Assembly: GCA_004802705.1 (NCBI GenBank)
Contig: SGPL01000374.1
Location: 8,733 to 32,919 of the forward strand
Direction: 5' to 3'
DNA: 24,187 bases
Origin: Bondarzewia mesenterica
Taxonomy: Eukaryota > Basidiomycota > Agaricomycetes > Russulales > Bondarzewiaceae
The notes under the pieces are model-generated. The model worked only from the letters and a program-made list of their open reading frames with translations, was not told the DNA's origin and searched no databases. This document shows, piece by piece, positions 1-22,245 of the stretch. A program made the translations under genes and the position numbers. How positions within the stretch are numbered: position 1 is the stretch's first letter; every line of letters starts with the position of its first letter.

Positions 1-151
1 AANGNNTCGTCANTNNNACGATNNACNNTGNNNTNNNTNNNNTNNNTNGNCGNNANNNNCNGCNGCANTNCGNGCTTANANNGTTTCGAAATAATGTCGA
101 CTGGATGTACTTCTGTAACTTACGTACGTACAACTCCTACTCGAANCACTC

Positions 152-2370
152 ATGCTTGCACCCCGCATCTTGCTTCAGCTCAACCATATCGGCTTTAGTT
201 GGCTTATCTTAGCTGCATTGTGTGCAGGGCAAGCGTATATCCCCGATGACGTCGCTTTGAAAGATCAGACGCCTTTCACTTCTAGTCATGATTTCTGTGG
301 CAGCCTTTCGCTCGGTTCCAAAAGGGTGATCACGCCTGAGTTGTCAGATTATGTCCGCGAAATCTTGCACAAGGAGGAAGTTCCTGGCTATTCCTTGGTT
401 GTTATTCATGCAAATAGCACGAGTGAGTACGTCGCGTTCGGAAACATGACGGAAGATGGGAANCCGATGACTACAGACGTGAGCTATCTTTCATTGATTT
501 TGGAATGCAAAAGACATGCAATTATAACTTTTCATCATCTTCCGAAAGACACTTTTCAATATCGCATCGTGCTCTAAGGCATTCCTATCCGCATCGATGG
601 GAATTCTGATGGATGATTACGGCAACGGACGCAACGTCACAGCGTTGCCTCCAGGCCTCGCAACGTTTGATTGGGATACGAAAGTAAAGGATTTACTGCC
701 GGATGAATGGGAACTCATGGATGAGTGGGCAGACTCGAAGGCTAGTGTGAAAGATATCCTGTCGCACGTCTCAGGAATGCCCAGGTAAGTATCGGCCTGC
801 TGTACTTATCTCCGAGTCATCTCGAAGTACCGACTCATATCAACCTTTCTTTCGGTCCACAGGCATGATTACTCTTATAGCTCAGGAGATACTCCGAGCA
901 AAGTAGTTGGCAACCTGCGACGCTTGAGACCAGCGTTCGAGCTTCGGGAAAAATGGTCATATAACAACCAAGTACGTGGGTGTTCTGCAACTGACATACG
1001 ATGCCATGGAGCACCATCATCGTCATGTCCTCTCACGAAACGTCCTTTTACCCACTTATGTACCCTTATGTCGCCACAGATGTATATGACCGGTGCGTAC
1101 ATCATAGCTAAGTATACCAACGGCTTCTACACCGCTTTCGCTTCGGATCGAATTTTCAAGCCTCTGAATATGTCATCAACGACATTCTCTCCCGAGGAAG
1201 CTGCCTCGTCCGGGAAGCTCGCGCAGACATGGACGAGCTTTGGTCGGCGGATACCATTCTGGTTCGCTGAAGACGACATGCACTTGAATGCTGGCGCTGG
1301 CGGCGTCATTTCTAGTGTCGAAGACCTTGCAAGTCACATCTCACCCTTACAGTTGATATATTTCAGTCACCGACATGTCTGGCTTGCTAGGAAAAATGGG
1401 TACGCGCACTGCTCAATGCAGGCGTCGACCCGCGCACGAATACGACGGTCATCCCCCGCGCCGCATTTGATGAAGTTACCACAGCACATGCGGTTATGAT
1501 AGGAAAGCCTTCATCTCCTGACGAGTCAATCACGGGCTACGGGATGGGTTGGTGGAGGATGTCGTACCTGGGTCACGAGGTGCGACTTTTCCGTTTCTTT
1601 TCTGGATTGCAAGCGGACATGAGCGGGAGTTTTGCTGAACGGTGCCAACTCCGTTTCAAAAGGTAATCTCACACGACGGATCGATCCCAGGAATCTCAAC
1701 ACGCGTCGCATTTTTGCCTGCGGACGGCCTGGGGATTGTCGCACTAGCTAATGCGGATGAGAAAGCTCAGGTCAATACGGCCGTGATTAATCGGGTGATC
1801 AGAGACGCTCTCAGTCTCAATGGCACGGATGCGAAAGCGTTGGTTCAGGATACAGAACACGCACATTCGCAGGGTAAGGACACATCGCTCCCGCTCTCGT
1901 TAGAGAGGTACACGGGCACATACAGCAACGCTGGTTATGGCACTCTCTCTTTGTGCGACGCCTCAGCCTCACAACCACCATCATCATACTGCGCGCGCGT
2001 GCTGTCCGATTTCCAGACAGTCGACTCTGCCACCTCGTTTATGGCCAATTCGTCGAAGCAGCTTCTCGCAGCCTGGCCCCGCATCTGGGGCTCCCATATT
2101 CGCCTCACCTATCATGAGGGGAACAAGTTTTTCACTGAGATCACTTCGTTGTTTCCGAGTGGCTATGGAAAGAATACGACACCGTTCGCGACGAGCGAGG
2201 GTCGGGACACTCCCATCCTAGAATTTGTCGAGACGGCAGGAAAGGTTGTTGGATTCGGATTGACCGGGACCGTGGACGATACGAAGGTAACAAGGAGGCA
2301 GAAGCTGGGCGGGGGTGTAGAGAAAGAGGCAGACGTTTGGTTTGTCACGATTTCTGGAAGTGACATATGA
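152..2370 (+). CDS. Secreted beta-lactamase/transpeptidase-like serine hydrolase
   Basis: Six exons: 152-478, 549-784, 863-971, 1080-1328, 1391-1579, 1663-2370, giving about 605 aa. The family is the class C beta-lactamase/penicillin-binding-protein fold, active-site serine enzymes acting on amide or ester bonds; the fungal substrate is unknown. The N-terminus has a hydrophobic stretch (GFSWLILAALCAG) that suggests a signal peptide. Family motifs appear only after splicing: SxxK as S116-C-S-K119 (in FNIASCSK), YxN as Y221-N-N223, and a His-Asp-Gly box at 374-376 in the place of KTG. The region around SHVSGMPRHD and the GYGMGWW segment are also typical. The fourth intron (1329-1390) needs a GC donor (CTT|GCAAGT). 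Base 463 is N, so one residue is unknown. The start is the first ATG giving a signal peptide; the upstream sequence is partly undetermined. Family call is firm, substrate is not. Confidence 0.9.
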
Positions 2371-4426: not shown

Positions 4427-4498
4427 GCCCCCTCGAGTCACTTCTTTCCTTGAGTGTTTTTCTTTGCAACTTGGCTTTGCCCTCCTCTAACGCTCGTT

Positions 4499-5548
4499 AT
4501 GCGTCTTTCACCGTTATTCATGCGCTTTTTATCATCTCTTTCCGCTGTCAATCTTCTCGTGCTTCCTGTTTTCGCTCGCCTTGACTTTGCTTTGCGTCAA
4601 CATTATGAGCCTCGCGCTTTGCTGGATGTATGCGCATACATTGACGCAGACGCGTTGGCACATGCCGGTCTCGTCGGTATCCCGGCGAACGTGCTTGCAA
4701 ATCTTGATCTTTGCTTATGTCTCTCTGCGTTACCTCTGGTCCTTCAGACCAACGCCAATGTGAAAGCTCTCGTCGATATTGGAAATACTGCCGTCGACGC
4801 TCTTCTGACTGCTCTGGTGTGTCCTGATTTTTTTATGAACCATCGCTATACTGATAACATGGGCTTTTCATTATCTCAGATCAACTCTGTTCCGAGTTCA
4901 CGGCAGTGCATATACCCAGCGCACTCGTCGCCCTTATGCACCAAAAATGACCCCTGTGGCCATAGCTGCCAGCCTCCCTATGTACCTCAGAATGGTCAAT
5001 GCGTGTGTTCCCTTCCGTACAAGGAATGTAACGGCAAATGTGGCCAATTTCACAAGATGCTATGCCTGCACCCTCCCTTGTCCATTCAGTGCTTATCTAT
5101 AACATTTCCTAGGGATGTAGTTCCGCCGTGCCTGTCGCAAAGCGAGGCCTCAGGAACGTCCATCAAAACAGGATCCACAACTTGGCTCATGCTCAGGCAG
5201 AGTGTGGCCCTGGGGAGACCGTCTGTGGTGCACATTATGGCTCGGCTGGATTCGAGTGTCTGAACACCAACAGTGCACTGGAGAGTTGTGCGTTGCTTGT
5301 CCTTCCGTCACCTTCATATCCGCTTCACACTCACTTTCGCAGGTGGCGGTTGTGCGATCCCTAATCCATTCCCGTCTCCATCTCAGCAAGGTCCCAAGGG
5401 TGTCGATTGTGCCTCGCTTCCTGGTGTTCTCGACGCTGAATGCTCAGTTGGCAAATGCATCGTCAAACGCTGCCGGGATGATTTCAGCATCAGCACTTCT
5501 GGCGACGAATGTGTGGCTAAGGCCGTTGAAGTAGGGAGGCGAGGATAA
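4499..5548 (+). CDS. CPL1-like cysteine-rich secreted protein
   Basis: Proposed exons 4499-4816, 4880-5056, 5113-5287, 5343-5548, about 291 aa. The start at 4499 gives a clear signal peptide (about residues 1-26). A hydrophobic middle is followed by a cysteine-rich segment (C-x-C-x5-C-x3-C spacing around QCVCSLPYKECNGKC). The C-terminal part, from about residue 196, matches the CPL1-like domain of basidiomycetes (GFECLNT...LESC, GVDCASLPGV, CSVGKCIVKRC). Known family: CPL1 of Cryptococcus is a secreted effector linked to capsule and host interaction; most homologues are uncharacterised, and a role in host or environment interaction is only inference. Introns one and three are GT-AG. The second (5057-5112) must begin with AT to join the two conserved halves in frame, so the donor appears mutated or non-canonical. 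If unspliced, the frame runs into a stop before the CPL1-like domain is completed. Confidence 0.8.
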
Positions 5549-6327: not shown

Positions 6328-8571
6328 TCAAGCTCGAAGGTCAAGCTTCAGCAAGGCGAACAGCAGTATGGCAGCGTTGCAAATAGGGCAACGCGCATTC
6401 TCCCTGACCTCCTTGACGATGCATCTATTTGGGTATAACCAGAAGCGTCAGATTTAGACGTCAAAAACAGGAAAGTGAAGATGCANATCTCACCTGTTGC
6501 AGAACAAATGCCCGCACGCCGTTGCCGTAATCTCTTCACAAGGGTCAAGAGTACAGGACCGGCAGTAGAACTGAGATCTCGTGGTCGCATTGGACGACGA
6601 GGATCTCAATGGCTGGGTTGTCGAAGATACAGCCCTCATGAAAGGAGAAATGATGGCAAGAGGTGTACTCGGCACAGCTGGCGGGGATGGCGACGACGTG
6701 GAGAACACGTCCATTTCCCTTGCCTCTCCGAGCAGCGTCTCCATGCGCTTGATCTCTCTCTGCCTCCACCCTCCTTCTTTCGCATTCGTAGGACTCCCGC
6801 TGGCACTTCCATTGAGAAGGTTGAAATTCGATAGGTCCCCAGAGGGCGTCTCAGCGATCGAGAGCCGAGAACGAGACGAAGATGGCTCAGAAGGGCTGAG
6901 AGGATGAGATTGAGTAGGCGTATGTACGGACGACGACGATGGTGACGACGTCATGAGATGTGGAGGGGGAGGGGTTCCATTTCTGTTAGAAGAATTTGTA
7001 GTAGCCCGTCGATACCAGAGAGGTACGTTTGAAGTTGAAGACTCTGACATGGTTCCGTTCGTCATTTCTCCATCAGGCGAACGATTGGACGTGTTGTCAC
7101 CGGAGAGAGTTGAGTTTGAAGAAGTAAGGCTGAACGTCCTTGCTCCGTCGCGATCAGAAAGGTCGAAGCCAGATATAGACCCCAAGCGCATTCTCGAGAT
7201 GCCACTCACGCCCTCCGGAACGTGTGAAATCGTCCGCGCACTCCGACCTGCAAGACCGGATGCAAAAACATTCGAAGAGGACGGCAAACTCTGAGCGGCG
7301 TGCGGCGCGCTCGTCTGCGTCCACGGCCATACCGATCTTAGCGTATGAGTAGGATAGCATGTGTCGCGAGTTCGACTTACAGACGAGGCCAATTGAGCCA
7401 ATGCTCTCCAAGGACCGGCCTCGGATGCCTATTCATCAGCTTCGTAGGTGTTGGAAGAATTCAGCTCCGTGTGTATGCTCACCTCCTCAGAACTCAAAGT
7501 TCCACTAGGTCCTGAATGAGGGTGCTGGTAGACCTGTTGAGAGGTTGAAGAGATGAAATGTGGTTGGGACTGACTACGCCATACCTCAGTCTTAGACTTC
7601 GTAGCCTAGGTCCAATCGTGAGCTACCACAGTCAAGGAAGAAATAAATGTGATGAACTCACAGTATGCGTTTCGGCATAGTGCTACAAACGAAAATAACA
7701 AGGCTTGTTCAACGAAAGACATGGGTGTTAGATATAGAAGAGAGAATAGTACCTCAACCTTCGTTTGCACGTCCTTGAAGACCTTGTAACATATCCCGCA
7801 CATGCTATGAATTCCCGGATCGCTATTGTGTAGATCCAACTCCGCCGAAGAAGCGAAGGGTATATCGCATATACCGCAACGCAACTCGGGATGAGCATGT
7901 TTACTAGCTTTGTGCTATGCATTCGACATGTCAGGCATATAGAGTATAATAGGCGACAGTTCAGCATACCTCGTCGAGCTTCGTCTGGCTCTCGAATCCA
8001 ATAAAACATTCCTCACAATGAGGATGATTCCCAGAATTGAGGTAATGCTTATCCAGTTCGTCCTTGAACATGATCAAATTACAGCACCTTACCCTCGGAT
8101 GCTCGTCCGCCATGTGCTTCATTTCGGATAGAAAAGATAAAAATGCAGAATCCGTGAGCCAGTGAGAACAGCTAAGGACAAGGAAATGCGTGGCTAACCA
8201 CGGCAAGAGCTTCATTGTCTCTCACTCCGCTGGCGCAACGACGACAGTTCGGATGAGCATCGGAGGCACGATAATGCTGTTCTAGAGCAGTCTGTGAATG
8301 AAATTTCCGATCGCATTTGTCGCAATAGACCACGTGCTTGGCTTCGTTGTGCTGATATCCAGATCGCAAGCGTGAGGAGATGAGACAATTTCGAAATATT
8401 GAAGAGACCGACCTGAACGTAGGATGGTCGATCCTTAAAAACACGCTGGCATTCGTTGCACAGCGGATGGGTCCCGCGCGCAGCATTAGCATGAGCCATC
8501 AACTCTTCAGGAGTGTTGAAGACTCTCTCTACTGAGGCTAGAGAGCACTGTTGTGAAGGGCAGGCGGGCAT
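6328..8571 (-). CDS. Eight-finger C2H2 / C-terminal RING protein, copy A
   Basis: Ten exons on the minus strand: 8571-8413, 8351-8199, 8116-7970, 7914-7753, 7682-7662, 7605-7585, 7533-7483, 7428-7381, 7314-6494, 6424-6328, giving 559 aa. Residues 1 to about 220 hold eight finger-like units, mostly C-x2-C-x12-H-x4/6-H; units 1 and 5 are degenerate. A Ser/Pro/Thr-rich linker follows. A C3HC4 RING ends the protein: C505, C508, C521, H523, C526, C529, C540, C543, then a conserved hydrophobic tail. RING domains usually recruit E2 ubiquitin enzymes; fingers may bind DNA, RNA or protein. A role as an E3 ligase is inference. The start at 8571 is supported by the MP-x-CP-like N-terminus shared with copy B and by a TATA box 64 nt upstream. 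Exons 5 and 6 are only 21 nt each and less certain. An undetermined base (6486) lies in the last intron. Confidence 0.82.
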
Positions 8572-8634
8572 TCCAAGATTTGTTCGTGGCAAGACTCGGA
8601 AAGGTGAGGACCTCTATTTGTATGAAAGCACCAG

Positions 8635-8642
8635 TATTTATA
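8635..8642 (-). promoter_or_regulatory. TATA box of C2H2/RING copy A
   Basis: Reads TATAAATA on the minus strand, 64 nt upstream of the chosen ATG at 8571. This matches a consensus core promoter and supports starting copy A at 8571 rather than extending it into upstream exons. Confidence 0.55.
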
Positions 8643-8700
8643 TTTTCAGGCGTCCCAGCTTTGATCATGCGCAGCCGCATGAAGGCCATGCGGATGGCAC

Positions 8701-9006
8701 TCAGTCGAAAACGTGGCCTGCTTCGCAAGGTCTCCTAGGATTCGTAAGTCCACGATCGGCGCGACTTTGGTTAGGAGAACAATGGTGGACGTCCACTCAC
8801 ATGTAATAAGCACAATCGGTCATCCCATAGTGAGTCTACGTTATTACGGCGTCAGTAGAAGGATACGTGCCTTGGCACAGTATGCCACTCACAGTCCTCG
8901 ACCAGCTTAGGTATTGATGGTCCAAGGGGACTCCAAGATTGGAACAAGTGTACAGAACAATGGACGTCAAAAGATGGTACGAAATGTACCTTCCCTTCCC
9001 ACACAT
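8701..9006 (-). CDS. Possible small minus-strand gene (very tentative)
   Basis: I do not recognise a family. Two introns with good signals lie here: 8892-8836 (GTGAGT donor, TACTGACG branch point) and 8800-8735 (GTGAGT donor, CCTAACC branch point). One model, exons 9006-8893, 8835-8801 and 8734-8701, starts at an ATG and gives about 60 aa with a mildly hydrophobic middle (LLTSIVLYTCS). A second frame through the same exons stays open longer, from 9133 to 8507, and would overlap the start of copy A. Because two frames compete, I trust the splice sites more than either protein. It could be the 5' leader of another transcript. Confidence 0.2.
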
Positions 9007-9908
9007 ACTGCCTTGTGATTATTACTGACTCGAACCTATTTCCCCTTGAGTGTTTGGGTACCTGTGGGGGAACTGTCGAAACATTCTCAATAGTTCCATG
9101 AGTCACAAACGAGGAAGTACATACTTCACTCACTGCTACCCTACTGCGCTAGACTGGTGACCAAATCTCTAGATAGCGGGCGCAGTGACGGACAAGTCGG
9201 GTACTGCGCCCTATCGCGGCCCAAGCTCAATGGCCTCATCCTTGCCCAAAAGGGTTTTACGATGTATGCCTTGAACCATGCCAGACTATTCCTGTGGTAC
9301 GCATCTACCTAGAGAATTTCCTGCTCTTCTCGCGGTGATGAATTTCAGGCATTCAGAATTGACTCGAAATTGTTAAGTCCGCCACGGTACGAAGGACACC
9401 TCACAATAAAATTGTGTACAAATGCACGTAGATATATGCGAGCTTGTTCTAGTCTCGCATTTATGCTTCACGTCAAAGTCATTCGCCTTGAAATCCGATC
9501 TAGTCAGCGACTAAGCACGCTACGGGAAATAGCTTACTCGCATGAGATTCGCCCTTTGCGTGCTATAAAGGCTCTAATTCGGGCTGATACGAGAATTCGA
9601 CAACGCTCGTCGTAAGTTTCTGTGACTGTCCGTTGACAGCTGTCGGTGAGCGCCTGAAGAATAACGAAAGATACGAGTCAGATAAACGTAGAACGTTATC
9701 CTTATACTTACATCTGATGAAGTACATCTTCCAACCTCCCGCTCTGCGCGTCCTAAGAAACGTGAACGAGTCGTACATCACATATTTGGTATGTTGTAGC
9801 ACGAAAGCGATACATCGCAGGGCGATCGATGGACGCAGCAATTCCGAAGGACGTGCGAGATACCGCAGCAAAGATGCTGCTGACTGTGCAGATGCCAGAA
9901 TCGAGAGC

Positions 9909-10016
9909 GAGTAGATAGTAGCATGCTTCATGGCGCTCTCTTGAATAGGGAAAGCGGATCAAGAGTAGGACATAGCTTGCTTCGTGGCGTCGTCTTAAAC
10001 AGGGAAAGCGGATCAA
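9909..10016. repeat. Imperfect tandem duplication, two 54-nt copies
   Basis: Copy one is 9909-9962 and copy two 9963-10016, directly adjacent. By eye 43 of 54 positions match. The right halves are almost the same, both ending in AGGGAAAGCGGATCAA. The divergence shows it is not recent. No gene or mobile element is evident around it. Confidence 0.75.
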
Positions 10017-10625
10017 TCTCCAGCATTAAAGTTAAGCAGTCCAAAGGCTAGCCAAAGTTAGTCCTCGCGTGTGACAAGATATACAAAGATAGAAGGGCGA
10101 CTCGGTCTATGATTTTCAGCAGGCAGCCAAGGAAAGAGAACCCAGACAAAAACTGAAGCATCATCGCAGCAAACACGCACCGTGCTCCACAAGCAATGGA
10201 AGATGAATTATGGCGTTAGCCGATACTGGCGCCTACCGCGTCTCATTTCTTCTCACAATATCAACTCACTACATATAGGGAAGAAATCACTAGGTCAGGC
10301 CGGGACAGTCGTCACAGTAGCCTGAGCTTTATCGCCCAGTCAGCCAATTCCAGAAGAGACCGCGGCACCCACTTCGTAGACGAGGCTGAGTCAAGACAAG
10401 TCTCGAGCTCGACGAAAAGCAAGCCAAATAAATCAAGGAAGAACCAACAGAGCAACTGGAGGATATTACAGGGCTTGAAGCTTCAAGACTTTACGAGACT
10501 ACGTCACCAAAAATATGCCAGGCCCGTCGCTATGAAATAGAAAACTTCATGAGGCCCGAGCAACGGCTTGATGTGGTGCGAAAAGACAGGCGACTCGGGC
10601 GTCCTCCAAATCTGTGACAAAATAG

Positions 10626-10646
10626 TGTGACATTGAGTATGTCACA
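10626..10646. repeat. Short palindrome with 8-nt arms
   Basis: TGTGACAT and ATGTCACA are perfect inverted copies separated by 5 nt. It could form a small hairpin or be a dimeric factor site, but it lies about 490 nt upstream of the halogenase ATG and such palindromes arise by chance. Confidence 0.4.
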
Positions 10647-11133
10647 ACTTCCTTGGCCGCTTTCAGCTAGTTTCAAACTGTTCCATTAGTATTCCTACGT
10701 CTCAGAAGAGCTCTCAGAAATTTAATGCGTCCTCGAACGAATTCGAATGGGCTCAGCTTGTTGTTTATGAAAAGATCACACAACGTTAACCTTCTTCTAT
10801 GGATTTTGCTTTCCATACGACCATGGATTGGACCGAAAATTCTGCCATTGTGGATCCATAGAACGTTCCCTTTCGCATCGTGATCGCTCAATACGGCTTC
10901 TTGGGACTTCGCTGTCGAGTTCCTCTCGTTGATTAGCATTTCTTTTCCGTTAGTTTCACCTTTTTCCCTTTCAGAACTCGGGGCCGATGAATTTTTGCGA
11001 TTCAATGCCGAGTATAAGACCATGATTTGCGCAACGGATCTTGCGGCTGTTCATCCGCCGACCTCTCCCCTTGTGTCTGTGCTACATCTCTTCCCTGACC
11101 CTCACTATTTTGTGCGAAATTTGAAAGACGACT

Positions 11134-14487
<3,354 letters not shown>

Positions 14488-15964
14488 AGAACTGTTGTGA
14501 GAGGTGCAAATTTCGTGAAGTTTGGACTTCCACGATGGCGTCTGGACTGTCACGGTTCGGGATCCGCTGTGTAAGTTAACTTTTGTTCTGGTGTGTTTTC
14601 TACGTTTCTTGGTGGTGCTTCTAGTTCGGGGATAGATCATTGTAAGTTATGTCCGCTGGTGTTATCAATTGCATTTCGTTGTGTCTGTAAGTACATACTT
14701 AGCTTTCTCGGTTTCGCATCTGTAAATGTAACCCCTCGGCATGGTTAAGGGCTTGTTTGTTTTAGCTTACCAAGTAATTTGTGTGGAAGTGCATGGGGTC
14801 CCTGCAACGTACCGAGCGCCTGCGTCGCGTCGCTGAGGACTCGTGATAAACACCGATCGCATAAAACTTGTCTGTCGCATAGTGTCGTTTACCACATGCC
14901 TATTGCCGCTTTCCAAAAGAAATCTGGGAGCGAAGGAAATGTGAAAATGTGGTCGACGTTCCGAGTGACCAGGACCTCACCTCTTCTGATCTCACCTATA
15001 CGGTATGAACACTTCGTGGACCTACATAAGCGCCGTGATCAAGTTGCTCCTGAAGGCCTGACATCCTGGGGCTGCTGCGCTTGGAATGCTGGAATATTGG
15101 ATCGAAGGTGACGCTCATTTTCTTGTTTCCCCGCTCTTTCCGAGTCAAAATACCATCTCCCTGGTTCCAAGTCTCCTCTCATGTCCAGTACTGACTACGT
15201 TGGCTTGCCTCGCTCGTTGTGGTAGACAACAGATGTATCTGTTGACTGCACAAGGGCCGGAGCGAAAGCTCCAGGTCTGACATGCACGTCGTTGAACGCA
15301 TCTGGTGTCAGTGTCAGGAGTTCTCGTCGCCTGTAGTGGGCGTTGCAACTGCCAATCTGGACTGCTATTCTATCTATTCATACCGTCTTGTTATGAGTCT
15401 CATCGAGCAAGAGTGACATGTCCCTGCCTCGTGATGTCCTCGCACCATAACGCGTGGCCAGTCCGAACCCCTCTATCACTGATCACAATCGTTGCGCAGA
15501 CCTCCTTTATATGACGATCTTGCGTTAGCTACGGAATTCATGCCATTTTGACGGGGAGATTCGACTTATCCTCCATCGCGTGTTCTCTGTACATGCTAGA
15601 TCGCTATTGAGAGGTAAGTAAAGTTTTGATTTCGTGCATGATCTGCTTATCATACCCATCAACATTCTGCCGCCGACCATTTAAAAGAAAATCCTCATAA
15701 GGAAACACGTATACACCCTGTCCACCAATGGCGCTGTGGAGGAGCTTCGAAAGCTCAGCAAGGCGAGAACGAGGCTGCTTGCGACCACATGCTGCACATA
15801 TTCAATCCCTTTTCCTCAAGGCTCGCTTCTTGAGATATACACGTTTCGCATGGCAGCCGCCCATACAGAGTCATTGCTTAAAAGCGCTGTCATGGTGATC
15901 AAGGGCCTGAGACCAGTCTTGACGTCTGACCCTTCTTAACCCCGCTCCCCTCAACCTCAGCGCG
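14488..15964. other. Intergenic stretch between halogenase and C2H2/RING copy B
   Basis: About 1.5 kb with no supported gene. The frames at 14779-15111 and 15736-15939 lack motifs, convincing ATG context and family resemblance. No clear TATA box precedes copy B; a TTTAAA near 15680 is too far to be sure. I see nothing else. Confidence 0.5.
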
Positions 15965-17439
15965 ATGCCAGTTTGTCCCCATTGCCAGAGCAACGTAGGA
16001 AAGCCCAACTTCAACAAGGTACGAATGTCATCTCGCCAATAAGCTCAAACTAGGATAAAGCCCCTCGTTTAGCACCTCATTCAGTATCATCCTATCTTGT
16101 GTGAGACATGCAACCGCAAATATGCAAGGCAGCAAGATCTGGAAGCGCATTATTTCAGTGTTAAAGAAAACATTCACCCCAAATGCAAGAGCTGTGGAAC
16201 AGGTTTCAAGGGTCCCCTGGAACTGGAAGCAGTGAGTGTCGTTGTATTCAACTTCACACTACTCTCGACTAATGCCATCTCATCTTGACCAGCACAATGC
16301 GTCTGTCCACCGACCATCGATACCCGTTGCTTGTGAATAACCAGTGAACGCAATCCCTCCACCGAGTATCCCTGGTCCATCGATTTCGTCCACGGTTGCA
16401 GAGGAATCTGAGTCGTCTGTCACCGAATCGCCTGATTCAGTTATTGCTGGCATGCTGGCTGCTGCCATACCGGCGATGCGTGGAGAACCTGAAGCCAGAA
16501 AAAAGGGGAAAGGTAGACTCTATGAGCCTGAATCTGAGCAAGTATGTCGTGATTGAACATACTCATTTCTACGCACTCATCTGCACTTAGTCCTTACCGA
16601 TCGAAGAAGATGCATCAATCGATTCCTTCACAGTTCTCACGAGCCGCACTCACAGTCCTCAATTCTCAGACGCGGACATGCACCAGATCATTTCGCAGTC
16701 AGGAGCGTATGACGACTCGACGCCAGCGTCATTACTTGACCATCCCGACGCACTATTGTTTGATGTCTCTCCTGTAGACGAGGTCGCAGGAGATGTATTT
16801 GGAATCGCGCAGAATGATGTTCGATCCGAGCACCAAGATGTGGAATCGCATGCTGGTCAAGAGTGAGCAGATTTTTTCATAGACCTAACTATGTGCATTC
16901 ATTCTCTTTCGCGCGGGGGCAGCTCCTCAATCACCATGTCGCAAGCAACTCTACGTGCGGATGAGGTTGCACCGGAAGCGGGTAAGCTCGTGTCTTCTCG
17001 ACTACTGAGGAGGTATTCCTCACGGTTGGGACGCAAGAATTATCATCAGCCCGTCAAGCTCAGAACACTTCGCCTCACCTCGACGAAGCGACAAATGCAG
17101 CTCCCGCAAACGCTCCCGTCGCACCTTCACCTTCGCATGTACAAGCATCCCCGCGCCCATCAGCACCATCACCAATCCCGAGTCTCAGTGAACCTCCAGT
17201 ACGATACGTTTCCCATATCTACTGCAGATCCTGCCGGCGGGATCCTTGCCTTGTCACCACGGCGACCATGTGTGGTCACATCTTCTGCAACAAGTCAGTG
17301 CTCTGGTTTCCCGTTTCACGTGAAAAATTCTCAACAATTTTTCAGTTGCATTGTCGACGAAGTTCTGAAATCCTCGCGGTGCCCGGTTTGCGGCACAGTG
17401 ATATTGCTTTACAGCCTGTTCAAATTACATGTGTTCTGA
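15965..17439 (+). CDS. Contracted C2H2 / C-terminal RING protein, copy B
   Basis: Proposed exons: 15965-16018, 16085-16231, 16293-16325, 16404-16541, 16591-16862, 16923-16981, 17038-17293, 17346-17439, about 350 aa. It starts MPVCPHC, then has two good fingers (CETC...H-x7-H and CKSC...H-x4-H in HNASVH) after a degenerate first unit. An acidic Ser-rich linker (DADMHQIISQ, SPVDEVAGD) and a Pro/Ala/Ser stretch follow. The C3HC4 RING is C297, C300, C313, H315, C318, C321, C332, C335, with the family's hydrophobic tail. Compared with A and C it lacks about five fingers, that is about three finger exons. The third-to-fourth exon junction is the weak point: an in-frame TAA at 16338 must be spliced out, and I chose donor GTTGCT with acceptor GCAGAG. 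The intron at 16982-17037 is needed to reach the RING frame. Likely an E3-type protein by RING; unproven. Confidence 0.75.
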
Positions 17440-18071
17440 GCGGACTCGTTGTCATGCGTCTTGAATCGCACTTGTACCGCCTTGATGCCAACGAATCCTT
17501 ATTTGCATAACTCGAGCCGTCCCACTCTCCGTGAGTTTACGCTTGTCACTTCTCATTATTGAATCCCTCCCAACTCTGTAGTTGCTTCAGGGAAGTCCGG
17601 GAAAGATGAGCAGTGGTAATTGAAGAGGGAAATTTCCGGAATGTCTCAATCGTGCTATGTTGCTCCTGATTGTCGTCTTTGACCCAACACCTTACATAGC
17701 TTTTCGAATGCCTTCCGCCTGCCAGTAACATCTTGAGTGACAATGACCTCCTTTTCAGCTGCAATGCCTCACAAACCGAAATGACATCTTCGACGCACAG
17801 ACGTTCGTCTGAAAGGCGATCATAGGCTTCTAAGGATCACTTGTTCGTTAATCACCGCATCCCCTTTCCCAAGCAAGTCAATATCCATGTGCCGCATCCA
17901 GACGTCCGGAAGCATGTCTCAGCCTGCGCAGACAGCCACTGTTCTTGTAGGCATCATCCTCGTGTTCCTCATGAGGCCAGCACATTTTCATCTCAGACCT
18001 ACAAGTACGTGACTTTTGGGCTGTCTCAGGCTCGTAGCGCACTCTATCCTGACTGACATCGTTCTGTTACC
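17440..18071. other. Intergenic stretch between copies B and C
   Basis: About 630 nt. The frame at 17841-18056 has His and Cys residues but no finger spacing, and no shared start with the family, so I do not count it as part of copy C. No TATA box is evident close to 18072. I see nothing else. Confidence 0.45.
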
Positions 18072-20056
18072 ATGCCCTATTATCCATTTCGCCTATGCAA
18101 TCGTCGATACTTCGAGACGGATGGTGCTCTGTTCCAGCATGCAAGGACCTCGAGAAGTACCCATCCATGTTGTATCCCGTGCGAACGTGTGTTCAAGGAT
18201 GATGAAGCTTATATTCAGGTATGTAGATCAATATATATCGGATGGTGAGCGTACTAACATGAATCTCAGCACAAGGAGTCTAAGCATACATTCTATTGCT
18301 ACAAGTGCAACCTGAAGTTTCAGTCTGAGGCAGCGAGAGAGCTGCACTATCGCAGCTCTAGGAATCATCCTACTTGCTCTCGGTGCAATACCAGCGTCTA
18401 TGGCCGCGATGCCCTGATACAGGTAGGGATATATACTACATGTGCGAGAATATATCTGAATATTGCCGGTTGTCTATTCCCCTCCCTTCCAATTGAAGCA
18501 TATGTCTCTACACCATCCTTTGGTTCCTTGCGGCCTGTGTGACGGTTATCTCTGTCACAAGGACGAATTGGAATCTCATTACTACAGCTCTTCCAATCAC
18601 CCAAGTTGTGCTCGGTGCGGCATCGGCTTCAAGAATACGGAGCTTTTCTCTAAGGTATGCTCGTCCCACTGTCGTGAGAGGCAATTGAACTCACTGTAGC
18701 TTCCCTTCCCGATAAAAACATGTTTTGAGTAGCACAAAGCCTCCGCCCATCCAGAGACAATACGATGCTCAATATGCAAAAGGCTGTTTGAATCGGATGA
18801 AGCGCTGGAGCAACACATCCGGGAGCCAGCTATTCATCCGAAATGTGGTTTTTGTAGCGGCATTTTTGAGAGCGCGGCTGTTCTTATCGAGGTGTGTTTT
18901 ACAATACTTATCCTGGTCATCGACGGTTCAGTGGCCCTGTCTCTAGCACGTAACCTCTCTCCACGTTCCCAACACGCTTGGACAGTCTTCCTCTAGTATA
19001 TCCACAATCAAGCCCGCGACGGTTTGTATGCTTGAGCAGGGCCTTACACATCATCTCATCATTCTTTGATTAACAGAAGCCAGCGGAAATATTAGGCTCT
19101 CCTGGCCCTAGTCCTTATGGTTCACGCACTGCAAGCTTTCGAAATTTCCAACAGGCCATTGGGTTTGACAAGCGCGCTACGCACAGACATGGAGTATGCT
19201 CTTGCAGTCCGATATAAAAATTATCATTGATTGTGTCTGCTGGCAGATGCCCTCAACATCTGCGACATCCCAAAGTTCCATTTTCTCTTGTTCAAGCGCA
19301 CCTTCTACTATATCTCCAACTCTTGGATCAATCACTCCTCCTATAACTGATGATGAGGACGTGTCAGGAGCGCATGATTCTGGAAAGGCATTTCCTCTGA
19401 ACGCGTCATCGTCATTTCAGCCACATTTTCGAAATATCTGGGATGAGAAACTTGATTTCGGGTTCACTGTGCCGGCCAAGGCTCCCAGTGAGGACTCATT
19501 AGCATCCCCGATACCGACCCCTCGACGCCTGCGAACCACCGTCTCTGTCTTTGACGAATTTTTATTCCGTGCACCAACAATCGACACTCGTAATGTCTTG
19601 ACCCCACTTGCAGCGAGTGGGCAAGCGTCGACTCTCCGGATCCAGCCTTCGACATCTTCGAAGGTGCCCTTGGCACAGACACCATCATCTGGAGATCCCT
19701 CTCATTTTTACTTGCTGAAGGGAATCCCCTCTCCAATTCCGGATTTACTGAGGACTTCGGGAGTGTTGCGACCTGCTATTGCCCCGGATATCGAGACTGA
19801 GCGATCTGCCCCAGAAAATCTGTTTCATTGCAGGATATGTCGAGCTGACCCATGCAAGGAAATTACTGTAACTGCTTGCGGACACGTCTTCTGTCACAAG
19901 TGAGTTCATGTCCAGCTTTCGCATGGGGTATCAACTGACTCCAGCCCATCTTAAAGCTGTATCGTGGAGAAAATCAGGGAAACCTCCAGATGTCCCGTCT
20001 GTAACGCTGCTATTCTGCTGTATACGCTATTGAAACTGGACGTTGTTCGGTCATGA
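18072..20056 (+). CDS. Eight-finger C2H2 / C-terminal RING protein, copy C
   Basis: Eight exons: 18072-18218, 18270-18422, 18499-18654, 18733-18891, 18947-19021, 19077-19193, 19247-19899, 19957-20056, giving 519 aa with all phases consistent. Eight finger-like units fill the first 220 residues or so. Units two to eight keep C-x2-C and paired His (for example CIPC...HKESKH, CARC...HKASAH, CGFC...HVTSLH); the first is degenerate. Exons one to four match those of copy A in order, and exon two is 153 nt in both. A Ser/Pro-rich linker leads to the C3HC4 RING: C464, C467, C480, H482, C485, C488, C499, C502, then the conserved tail. The start MPYYP aligns with the MP start of A and B. Intron one has a perfect TACTAAC branch point. 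Closer to A than to B. The E3-ligase role and the finger target are inference. Confidence 0.88.
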
Positions 20057-20694
20057 TTCTGCAGACGCTCCCAGTCTTGGAATTTCAGCTAATGACATTG
20101 CATCTGGCTTCTAGGGACGATGTCTTATCCCAGATTCGCCAATTATTGCAGATTCCTCTTGTAGTCTTACCTTTCCATGACTACATGTTTCTCAAATGCG
20201 GAGTATATGTGGGGTTTGCTATCTGACGGACGATCGTAACAGGCATAGCGTGCAATCTACGTATCATCTAGACGCTGCTGTGCAGCCTCATGATATAGTG
20301 ATGTCAAGTTAGCGTACGGGCCTTGTTCTCAGCGTGGGGATATGCAGTACATATCATTTTGTCGAAATTGGATGGTGCAGCAGACTTACGTCCGTCGTTG
20401 AAATTGTACACACTCAATAAACAATACTACGAAATGGACACAACCCTTTCTGAACCCTTCTGGCCTCACCAGGCAAAGTTAGGAATGCAATGCGGCACTT
20501 GGGAATTTTTGATACAAAGTGGTGTCCGTGCGCGGTTGAGAATTCGCTATATTTGTGGAAGGCCCCTAGCCGCGTATACAGCGGACTTTGAAGGCAACCA
20601 TTATATAGCATGTCGCGTCGCCCTGGCCCTATCACTCGTTGCTCTTTCCTCCCCATCTCCCACACCTCGTTATTACTCGGAAAACTTCTTGAAC
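20057..20694. other. Intergenic stretch upstream of the PARP-type zinc-finger gene
   Basis: About 640 nt. An open frame begins at 20323 and runs into the next gene, but only the part from 20695 resembles a protein family; the rest is chance read-through. It contains the TATA box listed at 20602. Confidence 0.5.
20602..20608 (+). promoter_or_regulatory. TATA box of the PARP-type zinc-finger gene
   Basis: TATATAG about 90 nt before the ATG at 20695, a suitable position for a core promoter. Confidence 0.45.
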
Positions 20695-22245
20695 ATGTCT
20701 GATACAGAGTCTAAAAAATCTGGTTATCGTCTGGAGTACTCTGCAAATAATAGGGCCAAGTGCAAAGGTGCATGGTTTTACCCCATGTTCATGATGGTGT
20801 TGGGCGTCGAACTGATGGTGACACGCGTTTGTCGGGTTTATAGGACCGAAACCGTGTTCGGGTGGGTTGGGTCTGTTTCTTCAGAAATGCTGTTACTGAT
20901 TGATGGGTATGTTCGTGCACAGGCACCACCCTTACCAAGGGTGAGTTGCGAGTGGGGACCATCGTTGATTTCCGCGGCCACACAAGCTAGTGCGTATCTT
21001 CATAAATTCCTAGTGTGCTTTTCATACTGATGGGTTTCCTCATGCCGTCTATCTCGACCGACGAAATCATCCTCACGTCGCATCTGCTGTGTATTGTTAC
21101 CCTTTGGCTCGCCAATCACAGTGCCTGGCGTCACTGGGGCTGCACAACGCCCCAAAATGTTTGCTAACATGAAGAAGCAGTTCGAGGACGCGTCGGAGCT
21201 CGACGGCTTCGAAGAACTCAAAGAGGAGGACAAAGAGCGCGTGCAAAAGGCTTGGGAGGAGGACCATGTTGCTGACGAGGATATTCCCGCTACTGCCAAA
21301 AAGTCTGAGGAGGACGAGGAGGCGGAAGAAGAGGAAAAGCCCAAGGCCAAGAGAGCGCCGGCGAAGAAAAAGGCAGAGAACGGAGACGCGGAAGACAAGC
21401 CGAAGAGAGGGCGCCCTAAGAAGGTAGTGACCGCTGTGTCTCTTGCTGCTAGAAGTCCACGAAGTTCACATTAACACTTTCTCTGTCTGCAGAAGGCAGA
21501 GGAGGCAGAGGAAGGAGAGGAAGAAGAGATACCGAAGAAAAAAGTTGCCGCTCGCAAACCTCGTGGTAAGGTAGGCCTTGATGATTTCAGTTTTATCGTC
21601 CATTCGTATCGTCTCACGCATTCTTATTTTTCAAAAGGTTGAGGAGGAAGTGGAGGAGCACGAGGAAGAGGAGGAGGCAGTAGAAGAAAAACCAAAGAAG
21701 AAGGCTCCTGCACGCAAACCGCGTGCCAAGGTACCACTGACTGCTAACTCGCTTCATGTCGGCTACTGATGCATGTTTTACAGAAGGCTGCCGAAGAGGA
21801 AGGAGAAGAGGAAGAGAAACCCAAGAAAAAAGCTGCAAAGAAGCCAGCTAGCAAGAAAGCTGCGCCCAAGAAAAAGAAGGTATGTACTCTTTCTTTCTGG
21901 TCTCAGACCTACGGCCATAACCCTAATGAATGCGTCGTATGTCAGCAGGAGGAGGAAGAATCTGGTGAAGACTTCGGCGCTGAGCTGGAAAAGGTTGACG
22001 AGGATGACGTTCTTGAAGAGGATGAAGCCGAAGAGGAGACGAACAAGAAACGCAAGGTACGGAATCATGTTTCACGCCCACGTTGTTACTCGTAGGACAA
22101 CGCGCTGACGCTGCCTTTCATCCAGCGTCCTGTCCCGAAGGCCTCTGGCTCCAAACCACCTTCCAAGAAGGCCAAACCCTCGTCTTCAAGGGCGAAGAAG
22201 GTCAAGGAGATTGTTGATAATTATGATGAGAGTGACGAGGAATAA
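20695..22245 (+). CDS. PARP-type zinc-finger protein with acidic/basic tail; apparent frame break
   Basis: Exons: 20695-20767, 20844-20861, 20923-20989, 21122-21423, 21493-21570, 21638-21730, 21784-21879, 21949-22056, 22126-22245; about 317 aa. The N-terminus is a fungal PARP-type zinc finger with ligands C23, C29, H57, C60 (HWGC). Such fingers bind DNA breaks or nicks; no PARP catalytic domain is present, so a nuclear DNA-binding or chromatin role is inferred. A segment rich in KKQFEDASELDGFEEL follows, then repeated units of acidic residues, PKKK and basic residues, ending in a Lys-rich and acidic tail. Fault: the HWGC part and the KKQFED part are in different frames. The junction is CCCCAAAA at 21150-21157, and the exons sum to 955 nt, one too many. 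This is a real frameshift or a homopolymer error. No other splice choice keeps both parts. Confidence 0.82.

What the first reader, a model, noticed from the sequence alone, without database searches (positions are those of the whole stretch)
6328..20056. Undescribed C2H2-array plus C-terminal RING family, three copies in one locus
Copies A (6328-8571 -), B (15965-17439 +) and C (18072-20056 +) share an MP start, tandem C2H2-like fingers, a Ser/Pro linker, a C3HC4 RING and a short hydrophobic tail. Linkers between fingers are only 2 to about 7 residues (often H-P-x-C), unlike the five-residue TGEKP-type linkers of classic arrays, so the array may be a compact rod rather than a DNA reader. An E3 ligase with a variable recognition array is a plausible inference. 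I know of no characterised protein with this layout.
Basis: partly seen in the sequence, partly recalled or inferred. Interest (0 to 1): 0.78.

Follow-up and report, generated by a model that had tools for sequence, protein, structure and literature searches.

The report
Mushroom zinc-finger ladder RING proteins
Three neighbouring genes of a mushroom-forming fungus encode probable ubiquitin-ligase-type proteins, each with paired zinc fingers in front and a RING at the very end, members of a mushroom protein family without a name in the records seen, whose finger ladder looks built to grip proteins rather than DNA.

Summary
A and C are intron-containing genes joining a C2H2 finger array, a disordered Ser/Pro linker, a C3HC4 RING and a conserved ~15-residue tail (C: 519 aa, complete). 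B has the same parts with fewer fingers; its gene model is unresolved. The same layout stands in single annotated proteins of sampled Russulales and of a few more distant mushrooms, all with generic names only. A and C belong to separate old clades; a third (D) lies elsewhere in this genome. The array is a two-finger ladder: H-x6-H finger, two residues, H-x4-H finger; in A, B and C a phase-0 intron cuts each step at the same place. Finger helices carry almost no Lys/Arg, and contact positions are conserved between orthologues, so neither DNA reading nor a hypervariable recogniser is supported. Best reading: a RING E3-type protein whose ladder binds a protein partner. The residue that tunes RING activity is basic in only 5 of 98 rows (mostly near-duplicate clade A) and Glu in 18 of 19 D-type homologues, suggesting weak, regulated or partner-dependent activity. 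New variant of a known kind; function untested.

The parts
6328..8571 (-). copy A: finger array, Ser/Pro linker, RING, tail
   Evidence: clade A in tree
7753..8571 (-). A finger exons 8571-8413, 8351-8199, 8116-7970, 7914-7753 (phase 0, each ends just before the first His of an H-x4-H finger; the last zinc-binding residues lie in the tentative exon 7682-7662)
6801..6880 (-). A linker element, a variant of the RSKxSVAETPSGDLxNFxLLxGSP element conserved in clade A (limits by eye; the search pattern itself misses this variant)
   Evidence: sequence; element
6494..6577 (-). A RING, first exon part (5' limit approximate; exon ends at 6494)
6328..6424 (-). A last exon: end of RING plus tail NAAILLFALLKLDLRA, stop
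15965..17439 (+). copy B: MP start, one clear two-finger step, linker, RING, tail; gene model unresolved
16073..16231 (+). B finger exon (phase 0, ends before HNASVH)
17346..17439 (+). B last exon: end of RING plus tail GTVILLYSLFKLHVF, stop
18072..20056 (+). copy C: complete 519-aa gene, exons 18072-18218, 18270-18422, 18499-18654, 18733-18891, 18947-19021, 19077-19193, 19247-19899, 19957-20056
   Evidence: clade C in tree
18072..18891 (+). C finger exons: seven fingers in the order b a b a b a b after a degenerate N-terminal motif; the last zinc-binding residues lie in exon 18947-19021
19661..19735 (+). C linker element SKVPLAQTPSSGDPSHFYLLKGIPSP, related to the clade A element (limits by eye)
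19820..19899 (+). C RING, first exon part (5' limit approximate)
19957..20056 (+). C last exon: end of RING plus tail NAAILLYTLLKLDVVRS, stop

Best explanation
These are members of an unnamed Agaricomycete family of RING E3-type proteins. An N-terminal ladder of two-finger steps (H-x6-H finger, 2 residues, H-x4-H finger, about 4 residues) binds a protein partner or substrate; a disordered Ser/Pro-rich linker, carrying in clade A and in C a conserved short element, tethers it to a C3HC4 RING with a tail of fixed length that ends the protein, and the RING recruits an E2. Shown by sequence or model: architecture, ladder regularity, exon-module structure, conservation, charge, RING ligands and fold. 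Inferred: protein (not nucleic-acid) binding, E2 recruitment, ubiquitin transfer, and that activity is weak or partner-dependent in Russulales because the linchpin residue is mostly Asn, Glu or Asp rather than Arg/Lys. Partner and pathway are unknown.
Confidence: 0.6

Rival explanations
1. RNA- or DNA-binding RING protein: the jaz-like fingers read structured RNA or DNA and the RING ubiquitinates bound complexes, in the manner of Hel2/ZNF598-type factors.
For: 30 of 31 homologues hit zf-C2H2_jaz at E <= 0.01; fingers resemble DNA-binding arrays by sequence (PRDM9, CTCF, Aart) and Foldseek lists DNA-bound arrays first.
Against: Neutral to acidic arrays with 0-2 Lys/Arg at all contact positions of a protein, against 12 of 32 in classical arrays here. 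His spacing x6/x4 and the 2-residue linker fit neither TGEKP arrays nor, as I recall them, jaz proteins. The long Foldseek alignments superpose badly (rmsd 13-27 in the 36 rows at E <= 0.001), although uncertain inter-finger angles in the model could cause that.
Confidence: 0.15
2. RING scaffold without ligase activity of its own: some members (clade D with Glu at the linchpin) act as the inactive half of RING heterodimers with active paralogues, as MDM4 does for MDM2.
For: Linchpin differs by clade: Asn in 12 of 13 full-length clade A homologues, Glu in 18 of 19 D-type homologues, Asn, Asp, Asp and Lys in the four C members, Gly in B, Lys or Arg in the four distant rows P0010, P0014, P0015 and P0018. 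Members seem to share a contig in five species (equal contig lengths). [quoted passage not shown]
Against: No dimer evidence; the aromatic tail residue that cIAP1 uses in trans (passage seen) is not evident at the matching place; all RING rows keep the eight ligands by construction of the pattern; in four other species A and D lie on different contigs.
Confidence: 0.2
3. Hypervariable self/non-self or incompatibility recogniser: the array varies under selection and the RING triggers a response.
For: Two contigs of this genome carry the D/E region at 82-91% identity, and one has 1.2 kb more between finger exons; dN/dS of three D finger exons is 0.64, on only 9 synonymous and 21 non-synonymous changes; step number varies.
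Against: Contact positions are more conserved than the free finger positions in clades A and D; whether the two contigs are alleles is not known.
Confidence: 0.07

Closest known systems
Rabring7/BCA2/BTL (RNF115/RNF126) E3 ligases
   Same: N-terminal zinc module, a middle region with short motifs, RING after it (PMC3738576, passages seen)
   Different: One C2/C2 finger that binds ubiquitin and a RING-H2; no C2H2 ladder
Hel2/ZNF598
   Same: C2H2 fingers and a RING in one protein (layout recalled; only the starts of abstracts seen)
   Different: RING at the N-terminus with fingers after it (recalled); works in ribosome quality control and binds RNA (abstracts)
IAP family (XIAP, cIAP1) and MDM2
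   Same: Protein-interaction modules in front, RING with a short C-terminal tail (cIAP1 passages seen; the rest recalled)
   Different: BIR or other domains rather than C2H2 fingers; aromatic trans-tail residue not evident here; the P0002 tail is modelled as a short helix at low confidence
Classical C2H2 arrays (CTCF, PRDM9, ZFP568, Zif268)
   Same: Zinc ligands, finger fold and core residues
   Different: Five-residue TGEKP-type linkers and DNA-reading helices (Zif268: +11.4 per 100, 5 Lys/Arg at 12 contact positions), no RING

Membership tests
RING-type E3 ligase | Eight zinc ligands in C3HC4 order | tested here: met
   A, B, C, D and 94 of 110 proteins in hand match the pattern; Pfam zf-C3HC4 in 31 of 31 homologues at E <= 0.01
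RING-type E3 ligase | RING fold and E2-contact residues (hydrophobic at C1+2; Pro in CPxC) | tested here: met
RING-type E3 ligase | Basic linchpin residue after the last Cys (preferred, not universal, in active E3s) | tested here: not met
   K or R in 5 of 98 rows; N 64, E 19, D 3; many rows are near-duplicates from clade A; XIAP, with Tyr, is a weak but real E3 (passages)
RING-type E3 ligase | Ubiquitin transfer with an E2 | not testable with these tools
   needs an assay
Classical DNA-binding C2H2 array | Five-residue TGEKP-type linkers | tested here: not met
   2 residues in 91 of 91 a-to-b linkers; b-to-a 4 in 61 of 88, 5 in 3
Classical DNA-binding C2H2 array | Basic array with Lys/Arg at helix contact positions | tested here: not met
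jaz-type dsRNA-binding zinc finger | Match to Pfam PF12171 | tested here: met
   A and C over the cut-off, B just below it (21.8 against 22.6); 30 of 31 homologues at E <= 0.01
jaz-type dsRNA-binding zinc finger | H-x5-H spacing and long inter-finger linkers (recalled) | tested here: not met
   x6 and x4 alternating, linkers of 2 and 3-9; the N-terminal H-x5-H finger of P0014 and P0015 is an exception
IAP/MDM2-type dimeric RING | RING plus short tail at the extreme C-terminus | tested here: met
   13-18 residues after the last Cys in 93 of 98 rows
IAP/MDM2-type dimeric RING | Aromatic tail residue acting in trans on donor ubiquitin | tested here: inconclusive
   the common F/Y lies at +7 after the last Cys, not near +11 as I recall for cIAP1 and MDM2; tail alignment uncertain
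IAP/MDM2-type dimeric RING | RING dimerisation | not testable with these tools
   only monomers can be predicted here
Hel2/ZNF598 | N-terminal RING followed by fingers (recalled) | tested here: not met
   RING is C-terminal in A, B, C and the homologues listed that have one
Rabring7/BCA2 | N-terminal C2/C2 BZF finger | tested here: not met
   C2H2 ladder instead

The most novel reading that the evidence does not exclude
A mushroom-specific gene cluster encodes a set of RING proteins that pair with each other: members with poor linchpins (clade D, Glu; clade A, Asn) need a partner or a particular E2 to act, while each brings its own protein-binding ladder made of exon-encoded two-finger steps, giving a combinatorial E3 system whose specificity is changed by adding, losing or swapping whole steps.
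Probability: 0.15. Interest if true: 0.65.

Novelty: new variant of a known kind. Interest (0 to 1): 0.45.

Why it matters
The proteins of this family carry only generic names in the records seen. They have a strict and unusual finger architecture, two clades (A and D) found in most of the sampled Russulales genera, and simple tests for activity and binding. The family would give a case in which C2H2 fingers appear built as a protein-binding ladder rather than a nucleic-acid reader, and a natural series of RINGs that differ at the residue known to tune ubiquitin transfer.

Tried and rejected

Mended after checking my calls: clade C is known here only from Auriscalpium, Artomyces, an unnamed metagenome protein (P0001) and the window, so I no longer call it Russulales-wide; the intron numbers for B, the wording on conservation and the contig co-location list were corrected.

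Full report
The finding. The window lies in a 33-Mb, 844-contig genome, on contig C306. I translated the three places, read the DNA and built gene models. C joins eight exons with GT-AG introns into one 519-aa frame; a search over GT-AG chains with a codon score, start and stop fixed, gave the same exons (C was in its training set). A's four finger exons and its RING end are secure; its small middle exons are not. B keeps an MP start, one two-finger step, the RING and the tail. After B's last zinc-binding His the frame soon meets a stop, and chains that reach the RING in phase need 4 or more introns of 40-120 bases (3 or more at 35-150, 2 or more at 25-300). C itself has four introns after its last full finger exon, so B may be intact or not; I call it unresolved.

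One protein, not two. A search with C found 19 proteins, an alignment search 82 and a search with the RING of a D-type homologue 19; the lists overlap and 110 different proteins were in hand. Annotated proteins of Auriscalpium, Artomyces, Lactarius, Lactifluus, Russula, Multifurca and Gloeopeniophorella (Russulales, as I recall their classification), and more distant ones of Polyporus, Lentinus, Cristinia and Armillaria, carry fingers and RING in one chain; a Trametes protein (P0018) looks like a remote one (sequences). The names given are generic (hypothetical, uncharacterized, RING-type domain-containing, zinc finger C3HC4). Of 31 homologues, 31 hit Pfam zf-C3HC4 and 30 zf-C2H2_jaz at E <= 0.01, some below the curated cut-offs. 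16 of the 110 lack the RING pattern: short fragments, unrelated finger proteins, and two annotated Lactarius/Lactifluus models with arrays (P0031, P0034) whose ends look out of frame or cut by eye.

The ladder. In 33 homologues plus A and C, 179 of 186 adjacent finger pairs alternate between H-x6-H (a) and H-x4-H (b) fingers. All 91 a-to-b linkers are two residues; the 88 b-to-a linkers are 3-9, 4 in 61. The parser sees only these spacings, and many rows are close relatives. One step is about 52 residues. In A, B and C, and by eye in D and E, a phase-0 intron falls just before the first His of a b finger, so each inner exon encodes one step shifted by half a finger. The number of steps differs (for example 3 in P0011, 4 in P0007). 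In 13 of 13 full-length clade A homologues one a finger has adjacent cysteines (CC) instead of C-x2-C, as in window A.

Linker. Clade A linkers hold a 20-residue stretch (SVAETPSGDLANFHLLKGSP, mean pairwise identity 0.95 against 0.50 for the whole linker). A pattern for its core is in 70 of 110 proteins: clade A, P0001 of clade C and fragments, but not in the other two C-clade homologues (P0002, P0003) nor in any of 19 D-type proteins. Window C carries it; window A carries a variant that the pattern misses.

Evolution. In the whole-protein tree (32 rows) winC groups with P0001, P0002 and P0003 (100/98), winA with 11 A-type proteins (97/89), and the D copy of this genome with 9 D-type proteins (100/98); B is unplaced, and the RING-only tree resolves little. 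Clades A and D are found in Lactarius, Lactifluus, Russula, Multifurca, Gloeopeniophorella and Artomyces (A also in Auriscalpium); clade C here only in Auriscalpium, Artomyces, P0001 and the window. Equal longest-contig lengths suggest that A, C and D share a contig in Artomyces (734390), A and C in Auriscalpium (422403), and A and D in Lactarius psammicola (372320), L. quietus (381893) and Multifurca (808622); in Russula compacta, R. earlei, Gloeopeniophorella and Lactifluus subvellereus the lengths of A and D differ. Proximity is therefore probably old but not shown everywhere; contig breaks could hide it.

Elsewhere in the genome. A D copy with RING lies on C237 and C683, next to finger-only genes (E) on the opposite strand with no RING pattern found in the stretches fetched. 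The two contigs align at 82-91% over about 8 kb; C237 has 1.2 kb more between the E finger exons. Alleles or duplicates cannot be told apart here. Three D finger exons differ by 9 synonymous and 21 non-synonymous changes (dN/dS 0.64). A 6.5-kb stretch between A and B has no second copy in the genome apart from a short dispersed repeat.

Verdict. A real family without a name in the records and papers seen: a new variant of the RING E3 kind with a two-finger ladder. The E3 role is likely but untested; the binding partner is unknown.

Noticed in passing
G000 C237:19002-28184 and C683:5958-13986 (loci L035, L036): A region with a D-type finger+RING gene and finger-only E genes is present twice at 82-91% identity; C237 has an extra 1.2 kb between E finger exons.
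   Followed up: partly
window 9150-9208: A stretch of about 59 bases matches 24 other listed places in the genome at 83-97% identity, a short dispersed repeat. A second one lies at L035:9483-9523.
   Followed up: no
window 119-2367 (+): Frames that read, by eye, like a serine beta-lactamase-type hydrolase; Pfam gives only a weak DUF3471 match below cut-off in the pieces scanned.
   Followed up: no
window 4454-5260 (+): Open frame with a signal-peptide-like start and a Cys-rich middle (by eye); no Pfam match at E 0.01.
   Followed up: no
window 11833-12986 (+): Frames that read, by eye, like a flavin-dependent halogenase or monooxygenase; no Pfam match at E 0.01 in the pieces scanned.
   Followed up: no
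window 20434-22092 (+): Frames with a PARP-type zinc-finger-like stretch (by eye) followed by Lys/Glu-rich repeats; no Pfam match in the one piece scanned, 20302-21027.
   Followed up: no
P0027 and P0029 (Auriscalpium, Artomyces clade A): An extra single H-x4-H finger stands 56-69 residues after the ladder.
   Followed up: no
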